This document shows positions 6,442-59,437 of a stretch of DNA of 64,000 nt, one piece after another (the first letter of the stretch is position 1; each line of letters starts with the position of its first letter). The stretch is from Pseudomicrostroma phylloplanum (lineage: Eukaryota; Basidiomycota; Exobasidiomycetes; Microstromatales). Both the position numbers and the translations under genes were made by a program. The notes beneath the pieces are model-generated. The model ran no database searches, was not told the origin of the DNA, and saw only the letters and a list, made by a program, of their open reading frames with translations. Location: contig BCHS01000012.1 of assembly GCA_039545275.1 (NCBI GenBank), forward strand, positions 558,001-622,000, written 5' to 3'.

Positions 6442-8865
6442 ATGCAACCAGCAACTACAGCGGTCCTCGTGGCATGGATTGCCATGCTGCAGCTCGCAGT
6501 CGCCATACCCCTAGCCAACCTCGGCACGGTCCGCAGTGGTGAAGGCTCCGCTACACGAGCTGGTAATCCACATCCCGGCGTCATTCATTCGACCGAGCAG
6601 TACGCTCCTCGCGACGTGTCCCAAGGCGCAGTTACACTGTATGAGCCAATGCCTGTCCGCTCTCTCCAGGCAGACGAGGGCACGATCGAGGCAAGGTTCA
6701 CACTAGCGCATGACGGCGAGCACTGGGTGGTCGTACCTCCCATTGCGCGACGCACCGACTCTGATTCTACCCGATACGAACAAGTCGGCCGAGACCTCGT
6801 CTCAGGCGAAGAGGACTTGGCCTTGCGAGATGTTGCGCGCTCCGAGAATGTAGCTCTGGTGGGCAGGGCCTTCTCGAAGCTCCAGTGCTTCACTGCTATC
6901 ATGACCCTCAGCTGGGGCAACGACGATGGGTGCTCCAAGCATCCCAAGAAGGCCACCAAACTCAAGATCTCCGAAGTGAGCACCAAGCGAGACGTACCAG
7001 AATCAGAGTCAAAGCCACAGCTAGAAGAGCGAGCTCTGGTCGAACAGCCAAAAGAAGAGACTGGACTGGTGCCGATCTTGAAGCGTGGCTACTCGAATCT
7101 GGCGTGCTTCACTTGGGTCATGACGCTCAGCTTGGGTAATGATGCTGGCTGCTCTAAGCACGCCAAGAAGGCGACAAAGCTCAAGATCTCCGAAGTCAGC
7201 ACCAAGCGGGATTTACTGGGTCTGCCTCAAGATGACACTGACTTGGCCACTAGAAGGGCTGTGATGCCCGAAGACAATGTGAGCTTGCTTGGTGGGCGGA
7301 CAGATTGAGTCTTGCGGTTTGTTGCAATCAGGGTCCACTGACACGGAGACTGATTCCCAGCTGACCGGTGAGCTCGGTGGACACTCCGAGGCCCTCGATG
7401 AGCGAGATGCTCCTGCAGGATTAGAAAAGGTGAGTGCCAACCAAAATCAGACAAATCGAAACGACCATGTGCGCAGGGACACTGAGGCGTGGGAGCTGCA
7501 TCAGTATGGGGTGCGTTCAACGGACGCAGGGAGCAAGGCGGCGCAGGAGCGCAGCGACCTATGGGCTGGACTTGAAAGGACCGCCAAGTGCATCCAGGCC
7601 ATCTCGTCTCTATTCCTCTGGAAGCCATATCGCGATGGTTGTGTATATAACAAGCCCTTCTACAAGCGGGAGATTGAGCGATCACCACTGGTGAGTTTCT
7701 TGATAGCAAGAATGGGCCGACCTGAGTTCAGACCTTATTGGTCTCCTGTCCGCCCTCAACAACAGGCTCAAAGACCATACCAAGAGCGACTTGTTCACAG
7801 CAACAGTCCTGCAGTCAACTTTGCCCGCCACGAGGACGTCGTCAAGCGCAACGCCCCTGCGGCTCCCAGGGTAGGTCTTGTTGAGGAGCCAAACCTCGAA
7901 AAGAGACGTTCCGTCGTCGATTGGTTGAATAAAGGCGCCAACTGCCTCTTGGCTTATGGACTTACTTTTGGGGTCGTGCCCATCTACAACGAGGGCTGCA
8001 AGAGGACTAAAAGGGACCTCGCCGCAGTGCAGGTGAGCAGCAGGGCGAGCACCTTTCCGATGGTTGTCCTGTAGCACACAAGTGCAAATGTAACGCCAAG
8101 CGTGACCTCACCAGCGTTGCGATGAGAGGAAAGCTTCGCCGGGGAGACGCACGTAGCACTTTCAGAGCTCGCCAGAGGCGTAAACTCACGCCCTCCTCTC
8201 CGTCACTGTCCCATCAGGAGGTACGGCGCAACATCGAGGACCAAGAGGAATTCTCAAGATCCCTGGTAAGTTGGGTCACAAAAGCAGAAAGCGGCTACGG
8301 GCGAGATGCCGTCGAGAAGTGAAGTTTTATGCTGGGTCATGGAACGTGATCGAGTGCGCTGGCAGAGCATTGTTTCGCCAAAGACTCCAGTCGCGAGAGT
8401 CAGTTCAATACTAACAATATGTGCCGAAGGGATACTATGCTGACAGACCCTCTCGCCAATCTTCCTGTCTGGTCTTGAGCAGACTGCACAGATTCAGAAG
8501 CGAAGCTCCCCGGACGCCGCACCTCTCTTCCACTTCGGTCAAGAGAAAGCTATTGTTGAGCGACGCAACGACATTGAGGTGGTGAGTGGGAAGCACTGTT
8601 CCGTTCCTCAGCGGCCGGCCATGGTCCCTGTCGAGCTTCATCTCGGCAGAGCCATTGGCGTGAATACCAAGAGGTTTCGACATGCTGACCTCCCTTCGAC
8701 TCTTCTCCTTAGTGGAACCGAAAGCGAGGAGTCGCGGGCTGCGTCATGTTCATCACGACGATGATGGGCGACTGGAACAGCTGTCGCTCGAGAAGTGCCC
8801 GCCGCAAGAAGGCATTCAAGAGGCCCTTCAAGAAGGCATACGACCATATCAAGTATCTCTACTGA
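6442..8865 (+). CDS. Secreted multi-module cysteine-pair polyprotein with dibasic sites
   Basis: The start at 6442 gives a clear signal peptide (MQPATTAVLVAWIAMLQLAVA, cleaved near AIP). Proposed exons are 6442-7278, 7361-7429, 7505-7690, 7766-8032, 8218-8265 (uncertain), 8447-8581 and 8713-8865. All have lengths divisible by three, giving about 560 residues. Five modules each hold a cysteine pair around a hydrophobic stretch (C-x14-C twice, then x16, x17 and x13), followed by a basic tail. The first two are near duplicates (FSKLQCF..GCSKH and YSNLACF..GCSKH) ending in STKRD. KR or RR pairs at STKR, ILKR, VVKR, TKR and QKR fit Kex2-type processing. No known domain is recognised. It resembles Kex2-processed repeat proteins in layout only. 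The exons between 8033 and 8446 are the weakest part. Confidence 0.62.
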
Positions 8866-16137: not shown

Positions 16138-16225
16138 TGGACGAGCGGCGATTTGAACGCCGGGCCTCATGCAGCGGTGAACACTGTATTGCTAAGCAAG
16201 CGCTCTACCCCTGAGCTACACGCCC
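16138..16225 (-). tRNA. tRNA-Ala (AGC) with a 16-nt intron
   Basis: Read on the minus strand, acceptor GGGCGTG pairs with CTCGTCC and the discriminator is A. The D arm is GCTC-AGGGGTA-GAGC and the T arm CGGCG-TTCAAAT-CGCCG. The anticodon loop reads TTAGCA, giving anticodon AGC. A 16-nt intron sits after position 37, the usual eukaryotic site. The anticodon stem has one T-T mismatch (positions 28-42) and the acceptor one T-T mismatch that is also seen in other fungal tRNA-Ala. The acceptor and discriminator match the alanine identity set. Confidence 0.9.
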
Positions 16226-16549: not shown

Positions 16550-17383
16550 TCAACATCGGACTGCCAGATGGGCTCCATCCCCCTTCTCCTCGGGCGCAGA
16601 TGCATCGGCTTCATCTTCACCAAGATCCCTGCGCCTCGGAGGTAGACCTTGACCAAATTGTGGTGGGGGATCCTGGCCCTTGCTGCCAGGGTAGAGGGCC
16701 TTGTATCCGAGGTAACTTGCCAGACCCAGGCCGGCTAGCGTCAGCAGACCACCTGCAGCGAACGTCTTCCTTCCGGGCCTCCACGATCGGTCAGTCCTCG
16801 CTGTCAAGCGGTCCTCGCTGTGTTCGTCGGAGAGCATCATTTTATCGGTGACGTCCCTTCGACAACCTCCTCCGGAGTAAGCGGGGTCCTCGGGCAGAAA
16901 TTGCTGTTGTTGTTCTTGCTGCTTCTTGCGCTCTCGCTCCTTCTTGTCCCTCAACAGCTTACTGATCAAGAAATAGCCTCCGCTACCGAGCGCTCCGAGA
17001 CCTAAGAGACTCCCAATGATGACGTTCTTGCGGCTGTGTTGCCGTGCGTCCAAAGTCGAAGCGTCAGGCTCGTCTTCGGTTGAGCGAGCTTGCAATAGTC
17101 GCCTGACCAGGAAGCGCTGCCTATCCTGGAAGTCGGTATCTATGTCATCGTCCTCAGTAGCTCGGGTGACCCAAGCGCTCGAAGCCAAGTCCGGCGCGAA
17201 CTCCGGCAGACTACGGGCGAAGACTGCTTCGGCACTGGACTGCTGATGCTCGTCCGTTGCTTTTCGAGGCATAAATCTTGGCTCAGAGTCTTCTGGTCGA
17301 AGGAGACCCTGCGGAGGTGCCGGAAGGGCTGCGACACCCTCGAAGACGAGGAAGACGAGGACGAAGAGTTTTGCGCACTTCAT
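16550..17383 (-). CDS. Secreted glycine-rich module family, member A (two modules)
   Basis: A 277-residue single-exon protein of a family I cannot name. The signal peptide MKCAKLFVLVFLVFEGVAAL is followed by PAPPQGLL, the block shared with members B, C and D. Two glycine-rich hydrophobic stretches lie at about residues 120-143 (SLLGLGALGSGGYFLI) and 197-221 (AAGGLLTLAGLGLASYLGY). The first is followed by a long Lys/Arg/Gln tail, the second by GYKALYPGSKG. Basic pairs (VRR, CRRD, RRRD) lie between modules, as in a precursor cut by a Kex2-type protease. The stretches could also be membrane spans. A TATAAG box lies 166 bp upstream. Gene B is next to it in the same orientation, so the two look like tandem duplicates. 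Confidence 0.78.
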   Translation of the reverse strand: MKCAKLFVLVFLVFEGVAALPAPPQGLLRPEDSEPRFMPRKATDEHQQSSAEAVFARSLPEFAPDLASSAWVTRATEDDDIDTDFQDRQRFLVRRLLQARSTEDEPDASTLDARQHSRKNVIIGSLLGLGALGSGGYFLISKLLRDKKERERKKQQEQQQQFLPEDPAYSGGGCRRDVTDKMMLSDEHSEDRLTARTDRSWRPGRKTFAAGGLLTLAGLGLASYLGYKALYPGSKGQDPPPQFGQGLPPRRRDLGEDEADASAPEEKGDGAHLAVRC

Positions 17384-18075: not shown

Positions 18076-20379
18076 TCAGCGACGCTCTTTTGAAGGCTTT
18101 TTGATCATGAGCGCCGGCCCATACTTCTTTGCTTCTTGGTATGTCTTTTGCTGTCGTTCTTCTTGCTTCTTGAGAGCGTTGGCAGCATAGAGAGATTCCA
18201 TCCCGAGACCACAAATCCCCACCACGCCTCCTCCTACGGTCCTACCCCAGTTGCCCTTCAGTCTCTTATCCAGTTGAGCTTCATCATGACCGAGGTCATC
18301 CGAGAAGGCCTGCTTGTTGGTAAGACAGGGGTTCCCTTGATGGAGGCTCCGTGGTCTGAGAACGGGAATCTGCTTTTGCGGCTGAGGGGCTTGCGCTTGC
18401 TCCATTGCCTTTGCCTTTGCGTTCTCCTTCCCCTGCTTGTGCTTGTGCTTGCGTTGCTTCTGCTTCTTAGCAGCATGGCCAAGAGATGCCATGGTCATCA
18501 TCGCGGTCGTAGCGCCTCCAATTCTGAGGAGGCCCTTTTGAGCTCCAGACATGCCCCGTTCGCTGAGCTCGAGGTCGCTTTCCTGACGAGATACCTCTTC
18601 TGCTCCGGTCTCTTGCCCGTGTTCCTCGTCGAGACTTCGAGTTACGGGCGCAGGGACAGCCCTTGGTGCAGTGACGTACCTCGGCACAGGAGTGGAGGCT
18701 GGTCCCGGGGCATGGTGGCCTTGCTGGCTTTGGCGCTCAGCTTTCGTATCCTTCAGCATCTGACTGACCAGGTAATACAGACCTCCTAGGGAAAGAACAA
18801 GTGCACCTCCCTTGGCTGCATTGTGGACCTGATGGAGGGTGATGGCTCGCTTTACCGGTTGACTTCCTGTAGTCGAGGCGCCATCATCGCCTGGAACGAC
18901 TCCCTTGTCAAAGACTTGTTCATGCCGAGCGTTGAGGCCACGAGGTTTCGGTGCAGGAGCAGATTCTGAACCCGGAGCGTCGTTGCCTGGGGTGAACGTT
19001 TGCCGACCGTCACTCTCACCACTGATCAGCTTGTACAAGCCATAGTACAGAGCAGCGATGGTAGCTGCCGCCCCTCCAAGCTTCCCCGCTTTGATCAGCC
19101 TTGTCTTTCGGTCTCTCTTCGCCAGCGAGGCTTGACCCACATCATCAAGACTGCGAGGCGTTGGCGGAGGCGTTGGCGAAGTGTCACCGGGCTGAGGGTA
19201 CGGGCCCTCGTCTGGCTTACCCTTATTCTTGTCGAAGACTAGTTTCTTCAGCAGAGCGTAGAGGCCACCGACGGTCGCTAAGGCAGCCACAGCAATTCCG
19301 CCCTTCACCATCTTGGATTGGCCGCTGCGCCTGGTGAGTGGATATTGACCGTCTTGAGCCTCGTTGTCGAGACTACGAGGTGTGGGGGAAGGCACGCCAG
19401 GCTGAGGGTGGGAGCCTTCATTGGAAGTACCCTTGTTCTTGTCAAGGACGAGTTTCTTGATCAGACCAGAGAGGCCGCCAAGGGCTACTAAGACGGCGCC
19501 AACGATTCCTGCCTTGGCCATCTTCGACTGGTTGTCTCGCCCGATCAGAGAGTAGCCATCGTCTGGCGTCTCACTTTCAAGGCTGCGGGGCGTTGGCGGA
19601 GGCGTTGGCGAAGCATCCCCAGGCTGAGGGTAGGGGCCCTCGTCTGGCTTGCCCTTGTTCTTGTCGAAGACCAGCTTCTTCAGCAAAGCGTAGAGGCCAC
19701 CTACGGTCCCTAAGGCAGCCACGGCGATCCCGCCCTTGACCATTTTGGACTGGCCGCTGCGACTGATGAGTGGATGTTGATCGTCTTGTGTCTCAATCTC
19801 AAGACTGCGAGGTGTTGGCGGAGGCACTGGCGAAGAACCACCAGGCTGAGGGTAGGGGCCCTCGTCTGGCTTGCCCTTGTTCTTGTCGAATACCAGCTTC
19901 TTCAGCAGAGCGTACAAGCCGCCGACAGTCGCCAAGGCAGCCGCGGCGATTCCTGCCTTGGCAAGCTTCCCTCTCTTCACGAGCGAAACATCATCCGTGC
20001 GTTGGATTGCCGTTTGCAGCTGTTGCTCGTTCTGAGCGTCTTGGTCTTGAATTCTGAGCGGCAAGTGTCGCATTATCTCCTGACGACGTCGGATCGCCTC
20101 AACAGTACGAAGTGAGGGGTGCTCCAACTGTTCCGAGTCGTCACTGCCGGCCTCCTGAGAAGCTTCGTGAGGTGAAGGGCTGAGCAACGCCTCGACCCTC
20201 TTTGCGTTGCGGTCGAAGTCATCCCTTCGGCGAACGGGTGGTGCTGCACCATCGCCTGTGTTTGCTCTTGAGCTCGACGAAGAGCCATCTGCTCGAAGAA
20301 GACCGTCCGGCGGTGAAGGCAGTGCAGCTACCCCTTCGAAGACGAAGAAGATCAAGACAAAGATCTTGTAGCACTTCAT
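18076..20379 (-). CDS. Secreted glycine-rich module family, member B (eight-module polyprotein)
   Basis: A 767-residue single exon. Signal peptide MKCYKIFVLIFFVFEGVAAL and PSPPDGLL match member A. A charged spacer (residues 30-134) precedes eight modules, beginning near residues 135, 207, 281, 350, 421, 511, 608 and 705. Each has a short basic or polar lead, a Gly/Ala/Leu-rich hydrophobic stretch of about 18-22 residues (for example AALGTVGGLYALLKKLVF) and a cationic tail (DKNKGK in modules 1, 2 and 4). Acidic/proline linkers ending in PRSL separate the first units. KR or RR pairs precede modules 1, 4, 5, 6 and 8. The layout is that of a precursor of several membrane-active or membrane-binding peptides, but no activity is shown. 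Ece1 of Candida has a comparable plan without visible sequence relation. Confidence 0.8.
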   Translation of the reverse strand: MKCYKIFVLIFFVFEGVAALPSPPDGLLRADGSSSSSRANTGDGAAPPVRRRDDFDRNAKRVEALLSPSPHEASQEAGSDDSEQLEHPSLRTVEAIRRRQEIMRHLPLRIQDQDAQNEQQLQTAIQRTDDVSLVKRGKLAKAGIAAAALATVGGLYALLKKLVFDKNKGKPDEGPYPQPGGSSPVPPPTPRSLEIETQDDQHPLISRSGQSKMVKGGIAVAALGTVGGLYALLKKLVFDKNKGKPDEGPYPQPGDASPTPPPTPRSLESETPDDGYSLIGRDNQSKMAKAGIVGAVLVALGGLSGLIKKLVLDKNKGTSNEGSHPQPGVPSPTPRSLDNEAQDGQYPLTRRSGQSKMVKGGIAVAALATVGGLYALLKKLVFDKNKGKPDEGPYPQPGDTSPTPPPTPRSLDDVGQASLAKRDRKTRLIKAGKLGGAAATIAALYYGLYKLISGESDGRQTFTPGNDAPGSESAPAPKPRGLNARHEQVFDKGVVPGDDGASTTGSQPVKRAITLHQVHNAAKGGALVLSLGGLYYLVSQMLKDTKAERQSQQGHHAPGPASTPVPRYVTAPRAVPAPVTRSLDEEHGQETGAEEVSRQESDLELSERGMSGAQKGLLRIGGATTAMMTMASLGHAAKKQKQRKHKHKQGKENAKAKAMEQAQAPQPQKQIPVLRPRSLHQGNPCLTNKQAFSDDLGHDEAQLDKRLKGNWGRTVGGGVVGICGLGMESLYAANALKKQEERQQKTYQEAKKYGPALMIKKPSKERR
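19123..19977 (-). repeat. Tandem coding repeat: four units of about 70-74 codons in gene B
   Basis: These are modules 1-4 of the polyprotein (residues about 135-419). Units 1, 2 and 4 are nearly identical in protein over GGLYALLKKLVFDKNKGK and EGPYPQPG; unit 3 has diverged. Units 2 and 4 differ at only a few residues but at many silent sites. Confidence 0.9.
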
Positions 20380-39667: not shown

Positions 39668-39696
39668 CATCAACATCAACATCAACATCAACATCC
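39668..39696. repeat. CATCAA hexanucleotide microsatellite
   Basis: About five copies of CATCAA that overlap the stop codon of secreted gene C (39688-39690). Confidence 0.85.
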
Positions 39697-40245
39697 CATG
39701 CACCAGGGTCCGTCTTGCGGCGCCTGAACGGCGCCATGTTGCACCTCCGGAGGCTGCGCTCGTGTCTGCTCCTCCTTTCTTCTCCTATCGCGCTCCTTGA
39801 GCCAAGCTGCGTAGGAAGCAAGTCCGCCGATGGCCGTGAGGGTCGTACTGACGATGCCGATACCCATGAGGGGGCGCTTCCAGTTCCGCGCGGGCTGCAC
39901 TCGCGGGAGGAGATTACTGCTGGCTTGGCCATCGTCTTCCAAGGTGACGGAGCGCTCTTCGAGAAAGATTGTGGCTCCGTTTGCGACCTGCCTATCCACT
40001 GAGGCCGAGGGAGAGGAGGAGCGAGAAACTGGGACCGAGAGCTCAGACAATACGGCGCTCCTGGCGTTTTGTACATCCTCAAATTCACGGCTGTGAGTCA
40101 GCACTGTCGATGTTGTGGGCTGCGTAGGTCGAGTCTCGGGCTGGCCCCTCTTGGCTGAAGTTAGTAGGCCTGGAGGCGGCGTGGGTAGTGAGGCTACGCC
40201 GTGGATGAGGAGAAAGAAGAGGACGAACAGTTGGGAGCACCTCAT
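39688..40245 (-). CDS. Secreted glycine-rich module family, member C (one module)
   Basis: 185 residues, single exon. Signal peptide MRCSQLFVLFFLLIHGVASL and PTPPPGLL match members A, B and most closely D. The middle shares DVQNARSAVLSELS with D (DVQSARRVVLSGLS). One module at about residues 121-150 (MGIGIVSTTLTAIGGLASY, then AAWLKERDRRRKEEQ) has the hydrophobic glycine-rich stretch and basic tail of the family. A basic pair (AKRG) lies soon after the signal peptide. It is the left copy of a tandem duplication with D and ends in a Cys-Met-Gly-Cys tail. Function unknown. A single-pass membrane protein cannot be excluded. Confidence 0.78.
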   Translation of the reverse strand: MRCSQLFVLFFLLIHGVASLPTPPPGLLTSAKRGQPETRPTQPTTSTVLTHSREFEDVQNARSAVLSELSVPVSRSSSPSASVDRQVANGATIFLEERSVTLEDDGQASSNLLPRVQPARNWKRPLMGIGIVSTTLTAIGGLASYAAWLKERDRRRKEEQTRAQPPEVQHGAVQAPQDGPWCMGC

Positions 40246-40604: not shown

Positions 40605-40890
40605 CTATTGTCCTGTATATACACAATTGCCTGCTGTCCGTCAAACTGCTCTGCTCTCACATTCGTTTGTCCTCTCCGGCTTGGTGGTGGTGGGAGCAAC
40701 CATCCGCCCCTCAAGCCACCGAAGCCACTACCTCCAGATGTATTCGGATCGCGAACCTTCCTGCCTGCAGACCTTGATGCCTGTAGTGCATGCGATAGAT
40801 GTGCGGGGGGAGGGGAGGATGGACTCAGTGCGCTCCCCGTCATGAAGCCTTCGCCTGATTGATACGCACTGAATTGCGATTTGGGAACAA
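40605..40890 (-). pseudogene. Broken 3' fragment of NECAP
   Basis: This stretch matches the 3' end of the intact NECAP gene (42130-42420), including its downstream flank (TCCTGTATATACAC), the last exon (codons for RKxRDxNTS, GFGGL, LLPPPPSRRG) and part of the last intron. The equivalent of the TAG stop has become a sense codon. The intron donor GTGAGT reads GTGCGT and its acceptor CTACAG is altered too. Upstream exons are missing. It therefore cannot make NECAP. It lies between the promoter of C and the 3' end of D, as expected of a leftover from a tandem duplication. Confidence 0.8.
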
Positions 40891-40958: not shown

Positions 40959-41546
40959 TCACTCAACCCATCGAACTTCAAGTCTGCTGATTGCCCCAAG
41001 ATCCCTCTTCGCACCAGGCTGCGGGTGAGGGGGCTGCGCTCCCGGCGGGTGTGCCCTGGCTCTTGCCTCCTCTTCCGCCTTCCTCTTCCTATCACGCTGC
41101 TTACGCCAATCCAGATAAACTCCGAGTCCGCCGAGTGTTGTGAGGATTGCACCGATGACACCAAAACCACCTACGGAGTTTCTCCATTCTGGTGGATGGC
41201 GCATTAGCGCTCGTGGTGGAAGAGATGTGTCGGCTTCATCGGCATCCCTGGTGGCCACGAATCTGGGTGAGATGATGGATGTCTGCTTGACCTGCTCGTC
41301 TGTAGAGCGATGGGACCTCGTCGAAAGCCCAGAGAGTACGACTCTCCTGGCACTCTGTACATCCTGAATATCACGACTGTTGGCGGACGCCTGCGCCTCT
41401 GCCGCTGCCGCTGTCGTGGAGTCTTGATAGTGAGACGCCGGCTGGCTTCGCTCGGCTACAGGCAATAAGCCTGGAGGAGGCGAGGGGAGCGAGGCCACGC
41501 CGTGGATGGTGAGAAAGAAGAGAACGAACAGCTGAAGGCACTTCAT
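40959..41546 (-). CDS. Secreted glycine-rich module family, member D (one module)
   Basis: 195 residues, single exon. Signal peptide MKCLQLFVLFFLTIHGVASL and PSPPPGLL. The Ala/Ser-rich spacer contains DIQDVQSARRVVLSGLS, shared with C. One module at about residues 121-150 (GGFGVIGAILTTLGGLGVY) is followed by the basic tail DWRKQRDRKRKAEEEARARA. A KR pair (GAKRD) lies near the C terminus. The TATA-like box is TTAAAAG at 41687-41693 (minus sense), 145 bp upstream. C and D are sister copies and more distant from A and B, mainly by having one module instead of two and eight. Role unknown; export is likely. Confidence 0.78.
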   Translation of the reverse strand: MKCLQLFVLFFLTIHGVASLPSPPPGLLPVAERSQPASHYQDSTTAAAAEAQASANSRDIQDVQSARRVVLSGLSTRSHRSTDEQVKQTSIISPRFVATRDADEADTSLPPRALMRHPPEWRNSVGGFGVIGAILTTLGGLGVYLDWRKQRDRKRKAEEEARARAHPPGAQPPHPQPGAKRDLGAISRLEVRWVE

Positions 41547-42213
41547 CTCAGCTGTTGAGGATCAATGGGCGACGTCGATAAGTCTGCGACGGGTCTCACT
41601 GTCACGGGTGATGACAATGCTACGGTAAGGAGGCAAGTTGAGCACAGCTGAAGGACAAGCAGAGAAAAAAGTCGCCTGCCTTGCGTCTTTTAAGCCCTTC
41701 GCCTCACGCCAGACAGCGGCCGCAATACAGCGTCGAGCAGCACTTCTATTTGATTGATCTTTGCTCTCGTCTGCTGAGGACAAGGAAGAGTGTAGCTGGG
41801 GTCGACCCCCTGCCTCTTGCGATACACTACCATGAGCAACGAGCTATTGCAAATGCGAATTTGGCACCGTAACCCTCGCGGTCAGAGCGTGACCCTAGCA
41901 GTTGAAGCATGACCCTCGCGGTCACAGCATCTTTTAGCATGGCTCGTTGCAGAGGTGAGTTATCGAAAAGTGGCGAGTAGTCACTAGCCGCACGATCAGG
42001 GTTGCCCCCGCAATCTAAGAGCTGCTCTTACTGCCTGCCATCTATTGCGCCCGGGTCAGCTCTTCTCTGCGTTGCTCCAAGCCGGTCACACTTTTGCTGT
42101 TTGTACCGTGTAATTCATTCAGTCATTCCCGGTCTCCTGTATATACACCATTTCGTTGCTCTCTGCGTCATCTAGTCTTCTGCTGCTTTGCTCTGCTCTG
42201 CTTTCACCATTGT
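41547..42213 (-). promoter_or_regulatory. Promoter of secreted gene D and 3' flank of NECAP
   Basis: It has the same ordered blocks as the promoter of gene C near the start, then about 200 extra bases with the 3x20-bp minisatellite, then the NECAP 3' flank that is also present in the left copy. No additional gene is supported. Confidence 0.55.
41869..41928. repeat. Three tandem 20-bp units with an inner palindrome
   Basis: Units at 41869-41888, 41889-41908 and 41909-41928. The best unit contains TGACC-CTCGC-GGTCA, an inverted repeat with 5-bp arms. Units 1 and 3 keep it almost intact and unit 2 is decayed. It lies about 320-380 bp upstream of gene D and is absent from the gene C promoter. 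Confidence 0.85.
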
Positions 42214-43224
42214 CTATCCTCTCCGACTAGGCGGCGGTGGAAGCAATCCTCCGCCTCCCAAACCACCAAAGCCACCGCCTGCCGATGTGTTCGAATCGCG
42301 GATCTTCCTGCCCCCTGCGCCTGGGATCTTGATGCCTGTAGTGAGGTAGATGCGCAGGGAAATGATGAGCTCGGCGCTCTCGAAGCCTACCCCTGCCTGA
42401 TACTCACTGAAAGTCTGTCCCTGCTTCAAGCTCAAATCCTTGGGCCCTTCCTTGGGTATATGAATACTCGGCCCACTCTCCCCTCCTCCGAGAAGATCTC
42501 CTGAAGCAGTCTCCCCTTTGCTGGCTGCCTCCTGTGCGAGCTTGGCGTTGCGCTGTCGTTTCACCCAGTCCTGTAGTGCGACGTTGAAGTCGAAGGAGTC
42601 GGAGCGATCCTCGAACTAGTAGTGCGGGGGAAGCGGATACGAAAATGAGCTCAATTAAGCTATCAAAACAAAGAGACCGGACGAATGTCTTGCATTCCTG
42701 AGGCCATACTCACGCCCATGCCGATGTAGGCTTTCTTCTTGTTGCCGGTGGAGGGGTCTTGCGACTCTACCCGCAGGACAAAGTACCGCGATGAATCTAG
42801 GACGGCCTCTACGCTGTTGCCTGAGATGTCGTATGGGCACAGAGCAAACAGCTCGCCTGTATAAGGGGTCAGGAGCAGATGCATGGTGGCCGGTCAGCTT
42901 TCCCCTCCACACTGGCGGTATCACACCTTCACCACTGTGCCTAGCGCTACACTACGACTGACCACTCTCCGCATCCTCCAATCTGATCTCACACTTGCCC
43001 TCCCTCTTCTCTCCTCCCATGTCACCGCTACCACCAACGACGATCTCGCTCTCCACTACCTTCATCCTCCCCTTCCAGATGGCGGTGCTGGCCAGATCTC
43101 CCGTCTTGGGATCGGACCAATCCGACGCCTTGTACCCCGCTGTAGATGAGGCGCGGGGCGGGATACGATACACGTACACAAGCCGGGTCTGGAAGAGGGT
43201 CGAGGCGTAGTCGAAGCCGGACAT
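42214..43224 (-). CDS. NECAP: NECAP-type adaptin-ear-binding endocytic protein
   Basis: Four exons: 43224-42963, 42856-42714, 42615-42408 and 42335-42214, about 244 residues. The PH-like NECAP fold is seen in order: VYVYRIPPRASS, AIWKGRMKVVE, GELFALCPYD, DSSRYFVLRVES, KKKAYIGMGF, EDRSDSFDFNVALQDWVK, then LKQGQTFSIKIPG. The protein ends in LLPPPPSRRG. NECAP binds the AP-2 adaptor and acts in clathrin-mediated endocytosis. The last intron (42407-42336) is 72 nt and has no stop, so it can be read as coding; splicing restores GQTF-SIKIP. A decayed copy of the 3' end lies at 40605-40890. Confidence 0.92.
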
Positions 43225-55663: not shown

Positions 55664-58600
55664 ATGTCCAAGAAAGCTGCGGGCAATGGCGCAGCCCCAC
55701 AGCCAGTGCCCCTGGGCGTCGCACCCGCACTAGGCGGCAACGACGGCGGCAACGCGCCCATTCCCATCATCAAGTTCGACGATGATAAAGATGGACAGCG
55801 AGACCGCAAGCTGGCAACACGAAAGGAAATCAACAAAAGGGGAGGAGGTAGTGCTCGCACATCCAAAAAGGCAAAGGCGGGCTTCTTTGCCCTCCTCACC
55901 TCCCTCGTCTTCCAGGCCGGAGTGGCTTACCTCCTCGTAGGAGCCTTTTGGTCTTGCCCGGCCACCTGGGGACACACAGACTACGACCTCAATGACAGCA
56001 GAGCGACCTGCAGGACTCTAGCTCAGGCCAAGTCTCAAATTGCACCCGTAGTCACCCCGTACTATCACGCAGCGCAGGCAAAGGTGGAACCCTACACTAA
56101 GCCTTACGTCGATGCCGCCTCTCCTTACTACCGGACAGCACACAAAGCCGCACTGCCTTACTACAAGACTGCCAACAAGCTGAGTAGAAAGTACTACAAG
56201 ACGACCAACCAGCTGGGCCGAAAGTACTACAATCGCAACATCGAGCCACTGCGAAAGCGCGCCATCAAGCGCAGCCAGGCCTTTGCCGACCCACACCTAA
56301 AGGTCGCGCAACAGCACTACAGCAAGCATGTAGAGCCCCACGTTGTCGCCGCTCGCAAGGCTGCTAAGCCCTACCAGGACCTCTACCGCCGGGATGTCGC
56401 TCCAGTACTCAATGATGCCTACCTCCAGTCCCTCGCTGCGGGCACTGGCGCCTACAAAGCCTACAACAAGCACGCCCATCCACTTGTCCTCTCCTCTGCC
56501 AAGCAGGGACACTCTTTCTACGTCAACCACTTTGACCCGGCCGTGAGAAGGACCTATGCGCTCTACATTCGACCACAGGCGGACAAGGCCCTGCAGAAGA
56601 TCTTTGACTGGAAGGCCCATGCGATGAGCAGTGAGGCAATCAAGGATGCCAAGCGATGGGCAAAGTTGGCAAAGAAGGAGGCCAAGGCGGTCGAGGACGA
56701 GAAGGTCGCGGAAGCAGTGAGTGAGCCGTGGGAAATGACAGTGTAGATCAGTGCGCCGACTGATCATCGTGACTCCCCTCTTCTGCAGAAGGCTTCAGCC
56801 GCGCATGCTATGAATGATCCCAGTGTCCTTGACCGCATCAACATCGCAAAGGACCAAGTCACCGGCGGCCCTCTAGCGGCAGCCGACCCAGTAGCCTCGG
56901 CCGTCTCAGATGCCGAGGAAGCAGCCGAGCTCAGCAGCACACAGGAGCAGCTCGAAGCATGGGAGAAGGGTCTCGCCGCACTCATTGACGAGGAACACAA
57001 GCTCGTACAGACCAGGTTCGACGAAATCCACGCCAGATTCGCAGAGACGGTCCCTGAGAAGTTCGACGTGCTCACCGAAGACGTCGAGATGGAAGTGGAT
57101 GGCGTCTTTGCCCAGCTGGCCAAGTCCTTCCAGAAGCTTGCCAAGCAAGAGGAAGGGTCAGAGAGGTCCGAGGCAGGCAAGACCCTCGTCGAGAAGCAGC
57201 ACGGCAAGCTCTCGCGCTCTAGGGAGAGGGCCGTCAGGTCCCTCGGGGGCCTCTTCGGCGAGCTCGAAGCAGAGGAGAACGCAACGCAGCGCGCTTCTGT
57301 AGAAGAGGTGGAGCGCTTCATCGCCGAGGCCACCAAGGCCCACCGCTCCCTGATCAAGTCTGCCAAGTCTGACAAGACCCGCGAGCAGTTCTCCAGCTGG
57401 GACGAAGGCATCGTCTCCCGCGCCCAGACCTTCTCTCAAGAGCTCGACTCGCTCAAGACGGGCAACAAGAAGCTCACACGTGGCGTGGTGGGTGTGAGCG
57501 GCGGCAAGAAGGGCGACATCCAGCGCAGGATCGGCACTCTGCAGAGCTCTCTCGAGGGACTCTACGATACTGCCCTCGCCGAGCTGGGAGCCTTTGGAGC
57601 CAAGGAGCTCAGCGCACTCGGTGCTGCTGGCGCAGCCGCTAGCGTCCTCGAGTCCATTGTAGGCGGTACCAAGCAGTTGAGCGAGGATGCCCAGAACGTC
57701 ATCAAGGAGGCAGCCGGCTCCCTCGGTGGCAGCGGATCCGGCGCCGCCTCTCTCGTGAGCGCAAAGGCGAGCGAGGCATCTGCTTCCGCCAGCTCCCTCC
57801 TGAGGGAAGGAGCCAAGAGCGTAGGCGTCAGTGTCGACCCTGAGACACCAGGCGAGTATGTCGAGTCCGTGTACGAAGCCGCAAAGTCTGCTATTCCCGG
57901 ATCGGGCTCTGCTACGGGCCGCGCTTATGCCAGTGAAGCCTCTGCTTCTGCTAGCTCTCTGGTGCGAGAGGGTGCCAAGAGTGTGGGCATCAAGGTGAAC
58001 CCTGAGACGCCAGCAGAGTACGTCGAGTCGGCTTACGAGGCAGCCAAGTCCGCTATGCCCGATACTGCTTCTGCCAGCTCGCTCGCAAGCGAAGCCTCTG
58101 CGTCTGCTAGCTCGCTGCTGAGAGAGGGTGCCAGGAGTGTGGGCATCAAGGTGAAACCTGAGACGCCTGGAGAGTACATTGAGTCGATCTACGATGCCGT
58201 CACGTCCGGTGTCCCAGGTTCTGCCTCTGCAAGCTCGCTCGCAAGTGAAGCCTCTGCCTCTGCCAGCTCATTGCTCAGGGAGGGCGCCAAGAGCGTGGGC
58301 ATCAAGGTGAACCCCGAAACTCCAGGCGAGTACGTCGAGTCCGTCTACGACGCTGCCAGATCCGCCGTCGCAGGCACCCCCACTGCTTCAGGCAGTCCCA
58401 TCATTAGCAGCGCTTCTTCCATCGGCAGCGAGTACTACTCTCAAGCCAGCTCCATTGCCCGTGGAGCAGCGCAGCGTGCTGGAGTACAATTTGAGCCTGA
58501 GTCGAGCGGAGAGATGATCGAATCGATTGTGAGCGAGATCTACTCCTCTGGTTCAAGCATCGGTAGTGTCGCCTCGTCCGTCGCATCCAGCGCCACATCC

Positions 58601-59437
58601 AACGTCGCAGGAAAGGTCCCAGTAGACTTTGACACTAGCCAGGCCTCGAAGATCGCCTCGGCCGCCTCCGTAGGCATGTCATCCTCGGCCACCGCCCTCG
58701 GCTCAGCCGCCAGCTCCGTCGCTCGCTCTGCAGCGCAGGCGGCAGGTCTGCGCGTGCAGCCCGAGTCCCCAGGGGAGTACATCGAGTCGGTCGCTGGTCT
58801 TGCAACAGATGGCGCTGCCTCCCTTGCTGGAGAAGCCTCGTCTGTCCTGCACCAGGCTACGCGCAGCTTGGCCTCTGCGGTAGGAGTTGAGGCTACACCC
58901 GAGACGCCCGGGGAGTACGTAGAGAGCGTCCTCGAGGCGGCGCAGGGTGTCGGAAGCGATGTAGCCGGCGCGGCCGGGTCGGTCTACTCGCGTCGGGGGC
59001 GCGTAGTGTCGAGCGCCTCGTCCCTCGTTGGCGAAGCAGGCAGCTCAGCCTCCTCTCTTGCGGCGCAAGTAAGCAGCTCTGCTTCGTCCCTCGCTCCAGG
59101 TGCAGGAAGTAGTGCTTCTTCTCTGGCGTCGCAGGCATCAAAGAGCGCCTCCTCCCTCAGCTCAGACGCATCAAGCAGCGCCTCCTCCCTCTCACGGCGA
59201 GGTCGTGTCGTCCTCGGCTCCTCTAGCGCCGAGGGCGCAGTAGGCTCCGCAGCCTCCTCCGCTTCCTCCCTCCTCTCCTCTCTCGGCTCATCCGGCTCCG
59301 AGGTGGTGCACCACGCGACGCGCTCTGCCAGTTCGGCACTGGGCGCTTCCCCGAGCCCGGAGAGCGCGGAAGAGTATGTTGATGCGGCTGTTCAGGGTGT
59401 GAAGAGTGTAGTGGATAGGGTGAGGGAGGAGTTGTGA
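55664..59437 (+). CDS. Membrane-anchored amphipathic repeat protein with PETPGEY modules
   Basis: Exons 55664-56716 and 56789-59437 (72-nt intron) give about 1,233 residues. A membrane segment (GFFALLTSLVFQAGVAYLLV) is followed by many short units with PYY, PYV or KYY at about 11-residue spacing (VVTPYYHAAQAKVEPY, ASPYYRTAHKAALPYY). Fungal proteins with this front half are often auto-labelled transcription factor hoxa13; no homeodomain is present, so that label should not be used. Exon 2 encodes a coiled-coil region (residues 370-590), then eight modules of about 45-60 residues built on Ser/Ala runs, REGAKSVG-like helices and PETPGEYVES. The role is unknown. The anchor and amphipathic repeats suggest a structural job at a membrane. 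Confidence 0.7.
57765..58930 (+). repeat. Tandem coding repeats around PETPGEYVES
   Basis: Seven units lie here, centred on PETPGEY, PETPAEY, PETPGEY, PETPGEY, PESSGEM, PESPGEY and PETPGEY. An eighth, PESAEEY, lies near the end at about 59355. The first four are nearly identical (SEASASASSLLREGAKSVG). Confidence 0.9.

What the first reader, a model, noticed from the sequence alone, without database searches (positions are those of the whole stretch)
18076..20379. Eight-module secreted polyprotein of glycine-rich, cationic-tailed peptides
Seen: one signal peptide, then eight units, each with a hydrophobic Gly/Ala/Leu stretch of about 18-22 residues followed by Lys/Arg. KR or RR precedes modules 1, 4, 5, 6 and 8, and PRSL-ending acidic/proline linkers separate the first units. 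Known: Kex2-type proteases cut after KR/RR, and some fungal precursors (Ece1, Rep1, Hum3) release several peptides this way. Inference: this is a precursor of several membrane-active or surface peptides and may be undescribed. Multi-pass membrane structure is the main alternative.
Basis: partly seen in the sequence, partly recalled or inferred. Interest (0 to 1): 0.88.

Follow-up and report, generated by a model that had tools for sequence, protein, structure and literature searches.

The report
Secreted fungal polyprotein of membrane-like peptides
A fungus related to Microstroma carries a gene for one long secreted protein that looks built to be cut into eight short, positively charged, helix-forming peptides that could sit in membranes or coat surfaces; it belongs to a small family for which we found no description and which published surveys could miss.

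Summary
In detail: a 767-aa ORF (complement 20379..18076) with a signal-peptide-like start and eight modules, each an uncharged Gly/Ala/Leu core with basic flanks. Comparative evidence favours a kexin-processed polyprotein over a multi-pass membrane protein. Two orthologs carry 6 and 7 modules. A second site (PxPR type before SL/GL) ends 16 of 18 linkers (shuffle mean 0.2). Cutting A8 at both gives peptides of 54-70 aa. Peptides are conserved (64% of positions identical in three species), spacers are not (27%). Modules score less favourably for membrane insertion than three presumed TM controls. Three paralogs lie in the window and three architecture-alike genes elsewhere in the genome; database relatives are from Microstroma glucosiphilum or unnamed contigs. 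One published Kex2 survey discards TM-positive proteins, so such precursors could escape it. Cleavage and function are not shown. Single-module paralogs also fit type I membrane proteins, and the B-type paralogs fit a hairpin. Filed as a new variant of Kex2-processed repeat precursors.

The parts
18076..20379 (-). A8: 767-aa eight-module secreted precursor (whole ORF)
   Evidence: orthologs P0001 and P0002
20323..20379 (-). signal peptide, residues 1-19 (VAA|LP by the -3/-1 rule, by eye)
   Evidence: hydrophobic N-terminus; residues 1-20 are 90-100% identical in 3 species and similar in paralogs
19972..20322 (-). N-terminal pro-region, residues 20-136, poorly conserved (37-58% pairwise over 21-136)
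19807..19971 (-). module 1 peptide (type I), residues 137-191, LVKR before, PTPR at end
19585..19758 (-). module 2 peptide (type I), residues 208-265, LISR before, PTPR at end
19375..19536 (-). module 3 peptide (type I), residues 282-335, LIGR before, PTPR at end
19153..19326 (-). module 4 peptide (type I), residues 352-409, LTRR before, PTPR at end
18940..19113 (-). module 5 peptide (type II), residues 423-480, LAKR before, PKPR at end
18637..18846 (-). module 6 peptide (type III), residues 512-581, PVKR before, PVTR at end
18349..18555 (-). module 7 peptide (type IV), residues 609-677, LSER before, LRPR at end
18079..18261 (-). module 8 peptide (type V), residues 707-767, LDKR before, runs to the C-terminus
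16550..17383 (-). B2: adjacent paralog, 277 aa, 2 modules; a 424-aa relative in M. glucosiphilum (P0005) has 3
40959..41546 (-). D1: paralog, 195 aa, 1 module
39688..40245 (-). C1: paralog, 185 aa, 1 module, tandem duplicate of D1

Best explanation
A8 is a secretory pre-pro-polyprotein. The signal peptide takes it into the ER. Its eight Gly-rich helices are hydrophobic, but less favourable for insertion than ordinary TM helices, so the chain mostly passes into the lumen. In the late Golgi the kexin cuts twice per linker: before each module at LxxR (with KR/RR or monobasic) and after its proline-rich tail at a PxPR-type site before S/G-L. This frees eight cationic peptides of about 54-70 residues and discards the pro-region and the spacers. 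The peptides then act outside the cell, either inserting into membranes (membrane-active) or coating the fungal surface. Shown by computation: architecture, repeat variation, motif enrichment, conservation split, a kexin gene. Inferred: cleavage, secretion, peptide fate and function. My estimates, not calculated: kexin processing about 0.75; given that, membrane-active about 0.45, surface coat about 0.35, other 0.2.
For: (1) Module number and order: window I-I-I-I-II-III-IV-V, P0001 I-I-II-III-IV-V, P0002 I-II-I-II-III-IV-V (my grouping); B-type 2 against 3. (2) LxxR within 32 aa upstream of the core: 18 of 21 A8-type modules (null mean 3.67, max 11 in 1000 shuffles), B-type 8/8, C/D-type 5/5, E 8/8, F 2/3; together 41 of 45. 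The three A8-type exceptions read PVKR, VAKR and PVKR, so 21 of 21 fit [LIVAP]xxR by inspection. The motif (P4 Leu or other aliphatic incl. Pro, P2 Lys, then Arg, Thr, Pro, Glu, Ile) is from PMC8528282 (parts 1-2 of 3 read). (3) Linker exit [LIVAP]x[KRTPEI]R[SG][LVF]: 16 of 18, null mean 0.20, max 3. (4) In-silico digest of A8: peptides 54-70 aa, net +4 to +13; the 7 spacer regions between them are net acidic in 5 and net 0 in 2. (5) Identical in all three species: 0.64 of 297 peptide positions, 0.27 of 96 spacer positions; 1 of 392 circular shifts does as well. (6) Modules 2 v 4: 13 synonymous nt differences, 1 amino-acid codon of 42. (7) No odd/even charge alternation in the three A8-type proteins; LxxR before even modules 9 of 10, odd 9 of 11 (counted). 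(8) Insertion score -0.01 to 3.42 for the 44 modules scored, against -1.09, -1.79 and -3.04 for three presumed TM controls (parameters recalled from memory). (9) One P-domain match in the genome, in a protein with peptidase S8 + P domain.
Against: No peptidomics, expression or localisation data. Six of the 21 A8-type entry sites are monobasic with Ser, Gly, Glu or Asp at P2; the older Kex2 matrix gives weight only to K/R at P2 and gives Pro at P3 and Leu at P4 low weight, and a third of the selected proteins tested there were not cut (PMC2515848, section 7 and section 14 part 1). Type I modules score 0.20-0.87, close enough to zero for partial insertion, and a control expected to be soluble (SDR-like) scored -0.38. 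Single-module C/D paralogs (basic C-flank) fit type I membrane proteins. In the B-type proteins P0005 and P0006 the middle module has the opposite charge asymmetry from its neighbours, as a hairpin would. The LxxR test was applied after seeing A8; B, C/D, E and F are only partly independent, and distances from site to core vary from 2 to 22 aa. F 2 of 3 is not significant on its own (P=0.06). The same digest rules miss the ARGL exit of P0001 and cut inside module 4 of P0002.
Confidence: 0.7

Rival explanations
1. Small single-span membrane proteins. Kexin (or nothing) removes the pro-region, and each module stays as a type I membrane segment with a basic cytosolic tail; the multi-module form is a concatemer of such units.
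For: C1, D1 and their relatives have one module with a basic C-flank; D1's confident helix is the module, residues 122-165, block pLDDT 80-88 in its middle; UniRef names P0005 and P0007 'Mid2 domain-containing'; type I modules score 0.20-0.87, near threshold.
Against: No Mid2 family match in Pfam for P0005 or P0007 at E<=1. In A8-type proteins a membrane-inserted array would place every other linker in the cytosol, out of kexin's reach, yet LxxR is kept before odd and even modules alike. Modules of types II-V score 1.03-3.42.
Confidence: 0.17
2. An uncleaved multi-pass membrane protein of 8 (6, 7) spans.
For: Eight hydrophobic segments with 19-aa hydropathy averages of 0.95-1.87. B-type proteins P0005 and P0006 show odd/even charge asymmetry.
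Against: Number changes parity between species (8, 6, 7; 2, 3), the flanks of A8-type modules do not alternate, near-identical modules would have to face opposite ways (m1/m2 78% identical), and A8-type modules score 0.20-3.42 against -1.09 to -3.04 for three presumed TM controls. No family above cut-off in Pfam, none at E<=0.1 in NCBIfam.
Confidence: 0.07
3. A secreted but uncut structural (cell-wall or matrix) protein in which helices and proline-rich linkers act together.
For: Proline-rich tails and low-complexity composition; predicted cleavage is unproven.
Against: Conservation boundaries coincide with the predicted cuts; spacers diverge while both kexin-type motifs are kept.
Confidence: 0.06

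Closest known systems
KEPs (Kex2-processed repeat proteins; Le Marquer 2019 PMC6339444, Umemura 2020 PMC7329392)
   Same: signal peptide, several similar units, kexin-type sites between units
   Different: entry sites fit LxxR, only partly KR/RR; a second PxPR-type site and a spacer per unit; units are TM-like helices, whereas the 2019 pipeline removes TMHMM-positive proteins; both surveys require dibasic sites. Whether relatives of A8 are in their supplementary lists was not checked
Rep1 / Hum3 repeat precursors of Ustilago maydis
   Same: same subphylum (Ustilaginomycotina; for Microstroma, recalled for Ustilago); secreted precursor of many units; Rep1 gives ten peptides of 35-53 aa and one of 228 aa with a hyphal-surface role (review PMC4617103, passages; PMC8528282)
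   Different: those repeats are described as amphipathic; the cores here mostly are not. No hit named Rep1 or Hum3 among the 2 and 6 hits of the protein searches; not compared directly
Ece1 / candidalysin precursor of Candida albicans
   Same: kexin-cut polyprotein releasing short helical cationic peptides (mBio review PMC12153327, passages)
   Different: Ece1 is cut at KR motifs and its active peptide is amphipathic and 31 aa; here 54-70 aa, Gly-rich, with proline-rich tails; not among the hits
K2PP effectors (kexin-removed pro-domain; PMC8528282)
   Same: a pro-region ending in LxxR before the mature part; the single-module paralogs C1 and D1 have this layout
   Different: the mature part is a TM-like helix rather than a folded domain, and A8 repeats the layout eight times

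Membership tests
KEP (Kex2-processed repeat protein) | N-terminal signal peptide | tested here: met
   hydrophobic h-region with VAA|LP site, conserved; by hydropathy and eye, SignalP itself not available
KEP (Kex2-processed repeat protein) | at least three similar units of under 100 aa | tested here: met
   modules 1-4 are 52-94% identical to one another, modules 5-8 are distant from them; peptides 54-70 aa
KEP (Kex2-processed repeat protein) | dibasic sites between the units | tested here: inconclusive
   5 of 8 modules in A8, 4 of 6 in P0001, 6 of 7 in P0002; the other six have only monobasic LxxR; published pipelines not re-run
KEP (Kex2-processed repeat protein) | not a TM protein by TMHMM (2019 pipeline) | not testable with these tools
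   TMHMM not available; hydropathy suggests it may be flagged
KEP (Kex2-processed repeat protein) | peptides actually released by kexin | not testable with these tools
   needs peptidomics
Rep1-type repellents | amphipathic repeats | tested here: inconclusive
   most hydrophobic 18-aa windows 0.06-0.26; with flanks 0.24-0.51, 4 of 21 modules beyond 95% of shuffles; the core measure (0.07-0.23) leaves out charged residues by construction; Rep1 itself was not measured
Rep1-type repellents | sequence relation to Rep1/Hum3 | tested here: inconclusive
   2 and 6 database hits, none named Rep1 or Hum3; searches limited to candidates sharing exact words; no direct comparison
Ece1/candidalysin family | peptides of about 31 aa released at KR motifs | tested here: not met
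   predicted peptides 54-70 aa and not all entry sites are KR; definition from PMC12153327 passages
UstYa-type RiPP (dikaritin) precursors | UstYa/DUF3328 gene nearby | tested here: inconclusive
   no match in the genome, but no control rang and introns are not handled
Polytopic membrane proteins | alternating flank charge (positive-inside) and fixed span number | tested here: not met
   A8-type: N-flank net positive in 21 of 21, no alternation, parity varies. B-type P0005 and P0006 do show asymmetry
K2PP effectors | LxxR or KR/RR between a pro-region and the mature part | tested here: met
   LxxR before 41 of 45 modules; disorder of the pro-region not tested
K2PP effectors | effector function on a plant | not tested
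   no expression or host data

The most novel reading that the evidence does not exclude
A class of fungal polyproteins ships membrane-spanning-competent helices through the secretory pathway. Each helix is kept just below the ER insertion threshold and bracketed by two kexin sites, so that a Golgi protease arms many membrane-inserting peptides at once. Because published surveys of Kex2-processed proteins drop TM-positive proteins or ask for dibasic sites, such precursors may be common and unseen.
Probability: 0.35. Interest if true: 0.75.

Novelty: new variant of a known kind. Interest (0 to 1): 0.56.

Why it matters
If true, it gives these exobasidiomycetes an orphan family of secreted helical peptides made in sets, with gene birth by tandem duplication and in-frame unit gain and loss visible in one window. 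It points to a concrete blind spot of Kex2-peptide surveys (a TMHMM filter in one, dibasic-only sites in both that I read) that can be tested at once by re-mining fungal secretomes with LxxR and TM-like units. It also raises a testable cell-biology question: how TM-like helices avoid being inserted on their way out.

Tried and rejected
Known family: rejected. Pfam gave nothing above cut-off for the 10 module proteins scanned, NCBIfam nothing at E<=0.1 for 6, PDB sequences nothing at E<=1 for A8, a scan of prokaryote genome contigs nothing. Weak Pfam listings such as RIC3 on P0005 (23.4 bits, cut-off 28.9) and DUF6215 on A8 (17.3, cut-off 27.1) are below cut-off and I treat them as compositional.

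Dibasic sites as the main evidence: rejected as too weak alone. A8 P=0.016, P0001 P=0.17, P0002 P=0.03; B-type 6 of 8, P=0.12; C/D 1 of 5; E 4 of 8, P=0.39; F 2 of 3, P=0.28.

AlphaFold of A8 from 3 sequences: mean pLDDT 33, not usable as a structure; it draws a helix over modules 1-7, one beginning within the core of module 8, and others outside modules, at 94-101 and 112-128, and a short one at 700-708. D1 from 5 sequences: mean pLDDT 57; the module helix is the confident part, lower-confidence helices lie at the N-terminus and in the pro-region. No fold search was run because confidence was too low.

The core measure excludes charges by construction; with flanks included, 4 of 21 modules have a clearly amphipathic flank window.

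Hydrophobin count as a hint for a surface role: inconclusive. PF01185 no match, control silent; PF06766 one match slightly over cut-off (25.7 against 24 bits) in a long frame that does not look like a hydrophobin gene, and one below cut-off.

E (1019 aa) found no database relative at E<=1 among 7995 candidates scored. Papers: searches (open-access PMC subset only) listed no paper that I recognised as describing this family; the locus prefix BCV69DRAFT gave 0 papers. I saw listings, and of seven papers passages or sections (PMC6339444, PMC7329392, PMC2515848, PMC8528282, PMC9769878, PMC4617103, PMC12153327); none was read whole.

Dropped rows: P0008 (lacks the N-terminus) was left out of the motif counts; P0003, P0004 and P0008 were not given insertion scores; G was found after the motif count and judged by eye (LEKR).

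Full report
What is there. The ORF lies on the minus strand, 20379 to 18076, 767 aa, no intron needed. The window belongs to a 17.08-Mb, 20-contig genome held without a name. The nearest named relative of the protein is BCV69DRAFT_35770 of Microstroma glucosiphilum (P0001, 608 aa, 69% identity in the alignment); a second relative, P0002 (684 aa, 59%), has no name; these were the only 2 hits with E<=10 among the 7995 candidates scored. So the genome is probably from a Microstroma-like exobasidiomycete of a different species (inference; lineage of M. glucosiphilum).

Anatomy. After a signal-peptide-like N-terminus (MKCYKIFVL..GVAA|LPSPPDGLL) and a pro-region there are 8 hydrophobic modules. P0001 has 6 and P0002 has 7. 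By pairwise identity I group them into five types: type I 42-94% alike, II 47-72%, III 65-67%, IV 67-74%, V 83-87%; across types at most 33%. Orders are I-I-I-I-II-III-IV-V, I-I-II-III-IV-V and I-II-I-II-III-IV-V. The front of the array gains and loses units; the last three are fixed. Modules 2 and 4 are 88.9% identical in DNA over 42 codons, with 13 synonymous nucleotide differences and 1 changed amino acid, so the peptide sequence looks to be under purifying selection. Module 3 is further off (16-17 changed codons of 42 against modules 1, 2 and 4).

Cleavage sites. That is 5 of 8 in A8 and 15 of 21 in the three species (null means 7.9 and 8.8 by two nulls), modest evidence. PMC8528282 (parts 1 and 2 of 3 read) describes an expanded Kex2 motif: Leu or another aliphatic at P4, Arg at P1, Lys preferred at P2 with Arg, Thr, Pro, Glu, Ile ranked next; its authors searched for LxxR. 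LxxR within 32 aa upstream of the core is present in 18 of 21 A8-type modules (shuffle mean 3.67, max 11 in 1000), 8 of 8 B-type, 5 of 5 C/D-type, 8 of 8 E and 2 of 3 F (P=0.06 for F alone). By inspection the three A8-type exceptions read PVKR, VAKR and PVKR, within the same motif. Site-to-core distance varies from 2 to 22 aa; it is 18 or more in P0006 m1, E m4, m7, m8 and F m2. At the other side, 17 of 18 A8-type linkers carry [PATRK]R[SGND][LVFYM] and 16 of 18 the stricter [LIVAP]x[KRTPEI]R[SG][LVF], shuffle mean 0.20, max 3; the two that miss the stricter form read KARGL in P0001 and RRRRL in P0002. Cutting A8 at these sites yields eight peptides of 54-70 aa, net +4 to +13; of the seven spacer regions between them five are net acidic (-1 to -8) and two are net 0 (the fifth is the sum of two fragments). 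The same rules give less tidy products in P0001 module 3 (exit missed) and P0002 module 4 (cut inside).

Conservation agrees with the cuts. In the part that is collinear in all three (residues 352-767) 64% of 297 peptide positions and 27% of 96 spacer positions are identical; 1 of 392 circular shifts of the mask does as well. This is the usual pattern of mature parts against pro-parts (general knowledge).

Membrane question. The cores are uncharged and Gly-rich. The most hydrophobic 18-aa windows of the 21 A8-type modules have moments of 0.06-0.26; including flanks the maxima are 0.24-0.51, and in 4 of 21 (the three type IV modules and P0002 m5) the flank window is more amphipathic than 95% of its shuffles. 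So most modules look like spans, with an amphipathic N-flank in type IV. A position-dependent insertion score (parameters recalled from memory, checked on controls) gives -0.01 to 3.42 for the 44 modules scored (P0003, P0004 and P0008 not scored), against -1.09, -1.79 and -3.04 for presumed TM segments of a window ORF, a Miro-like protein and the kexin, and 1.11 to 4.11 for four presumed soluble proteins; a fifth presumed soluble control, SDR-like, scored -0.38. A multi-pass protein would need alternating flank charge and a fixed parity: N-flanks are net positive in 21 of 21 A8-type modules, odd and even modules differ little (N minus C means 0.5/1.5, 1.3/0.7, 2.2/3.3), and numbers are 8, 6, 7. 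LxxR is kept before 9 of 10 even and 9 of 11 odd modules (counted). Against this reading: in the B-type proteins P0005 and P0006 the middle module has the opposite asymmetry (odd 1.0 and 3.5, even -5.0 and -2.0), which a hairpin would explain, and the C/D proteins could be type I membrane proteins.

Family. Searching the genome with A8, D1, P0005 and C1 finds three paralogs, all in this window and on the same strand: B2 (2 modules), D1 and C1 (1 each), sharing the N-terminus. Relatives of D1/C1/B2 in the protein database are P0003-P0008, 6 hits at E<=1 among 7992 candidates scored. P0001, P0005 and P0007 list the same longest-contig length (685,773) and P0002 and P0006 another (11,354), which suggests that the cluster is kept (inference from lengths). 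P0005 has a 135-aa stretch, residues 96-230, without a match in B2. More distant, architecture-alike secreted proteins are E (contig C1, 1019 aa, 8 modules; L012), F (C20, 562 aa, 3 modules; L010) and G (C3, 268 aa, 1 module; L034). Their homology to A8 is weak and could be partly compositional: in one-genome searches E with A8 3.0e-4, F with D1 7.9e-6, G with E 3.5e-5. The D1/C1 pair arose by a tandem duplication of about 1.3 kb that also copied the tail of the gene upstream.

Processing enzyme. One P-domain match in the genome, in a protein with peptidase S8 and P domains, that is, a kexin.

Known things. KEPs were defined by signal peptide, repeats and kexin sites. The 2019 pipeline discarded TMHMM-positive proteins and cut at KR or RR, else at KK (PMC6339444, section 24); the 2020 one required at least 3 repeats between KR, KK, RK or RR sites (PMC7329392, section 13). 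Whether A8's relatives are in their supplementary lists I could not check. Rep1 and Hum3 repeats are called amphipathic (PMC4617103, passages). Kex2 substrate tests: acidic or small P1', P2', P4' favoured, a third of the selected proteins uncut (PMC2515848, section 14 part 1).

Verdict. It works like a KEP; as a member it meets the signal-peptide and repeat criteria, is inconclusive on dibasic sites, and is untested for release. Function is not known; my leading guess is peptides that insert into membranes or coat the surface.

Noticed in passing
window 6442-8074, + strand: A second, unrelated-looking secreted gene (apparently with introns) has four units of the form C-x(13-18)-G-C, with LVGR, ILKR or LEKR shortly before three of them and basic residues after: another possible kexin-cut precursor, of Cys-hairpin peptides.
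   Followed up: partly
window 40646-40765 and 42193-42312: 79% identical DNA copies: the tail of what looks like a gene upstream of D1 was copied when D1 and C1 were duplicated in tandem (start-to-start spacing about 1.3 kb in the genes, 1.5 kb here); the inner copy looks like a leftover fragment.
   Followed up: partly
L012 49-3108 - (C1), L010 178-1866 - (C20), L034 766-1572 + (C3): Three more secreted-looking proteins with the same layout (8, 3 and 1 modules) elsewhere in the genome; E found no relative in the protein database at E<=1.
   Followed up: partly
window 16138-16225, - strand: tRNA called Ser(GCT) by ARAGORN in bacterial mode, also found by Rfam; by eye it reads rather as tRNA-Ala(AGC) with a short intron.
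   Followed up: no
window 56810-59437, + strand: 875-aa ORF with long Ser/Ala-rich repeats (SEASASASSLLREGAKSVGI and similar), unrelated to the finding.
   Followed up: no
P0005, P0007: UniRef names these relatives 'Mid2 domain-containing', but no Mid2 family match appears in Pfam at E<=1.
   Followed up: yes
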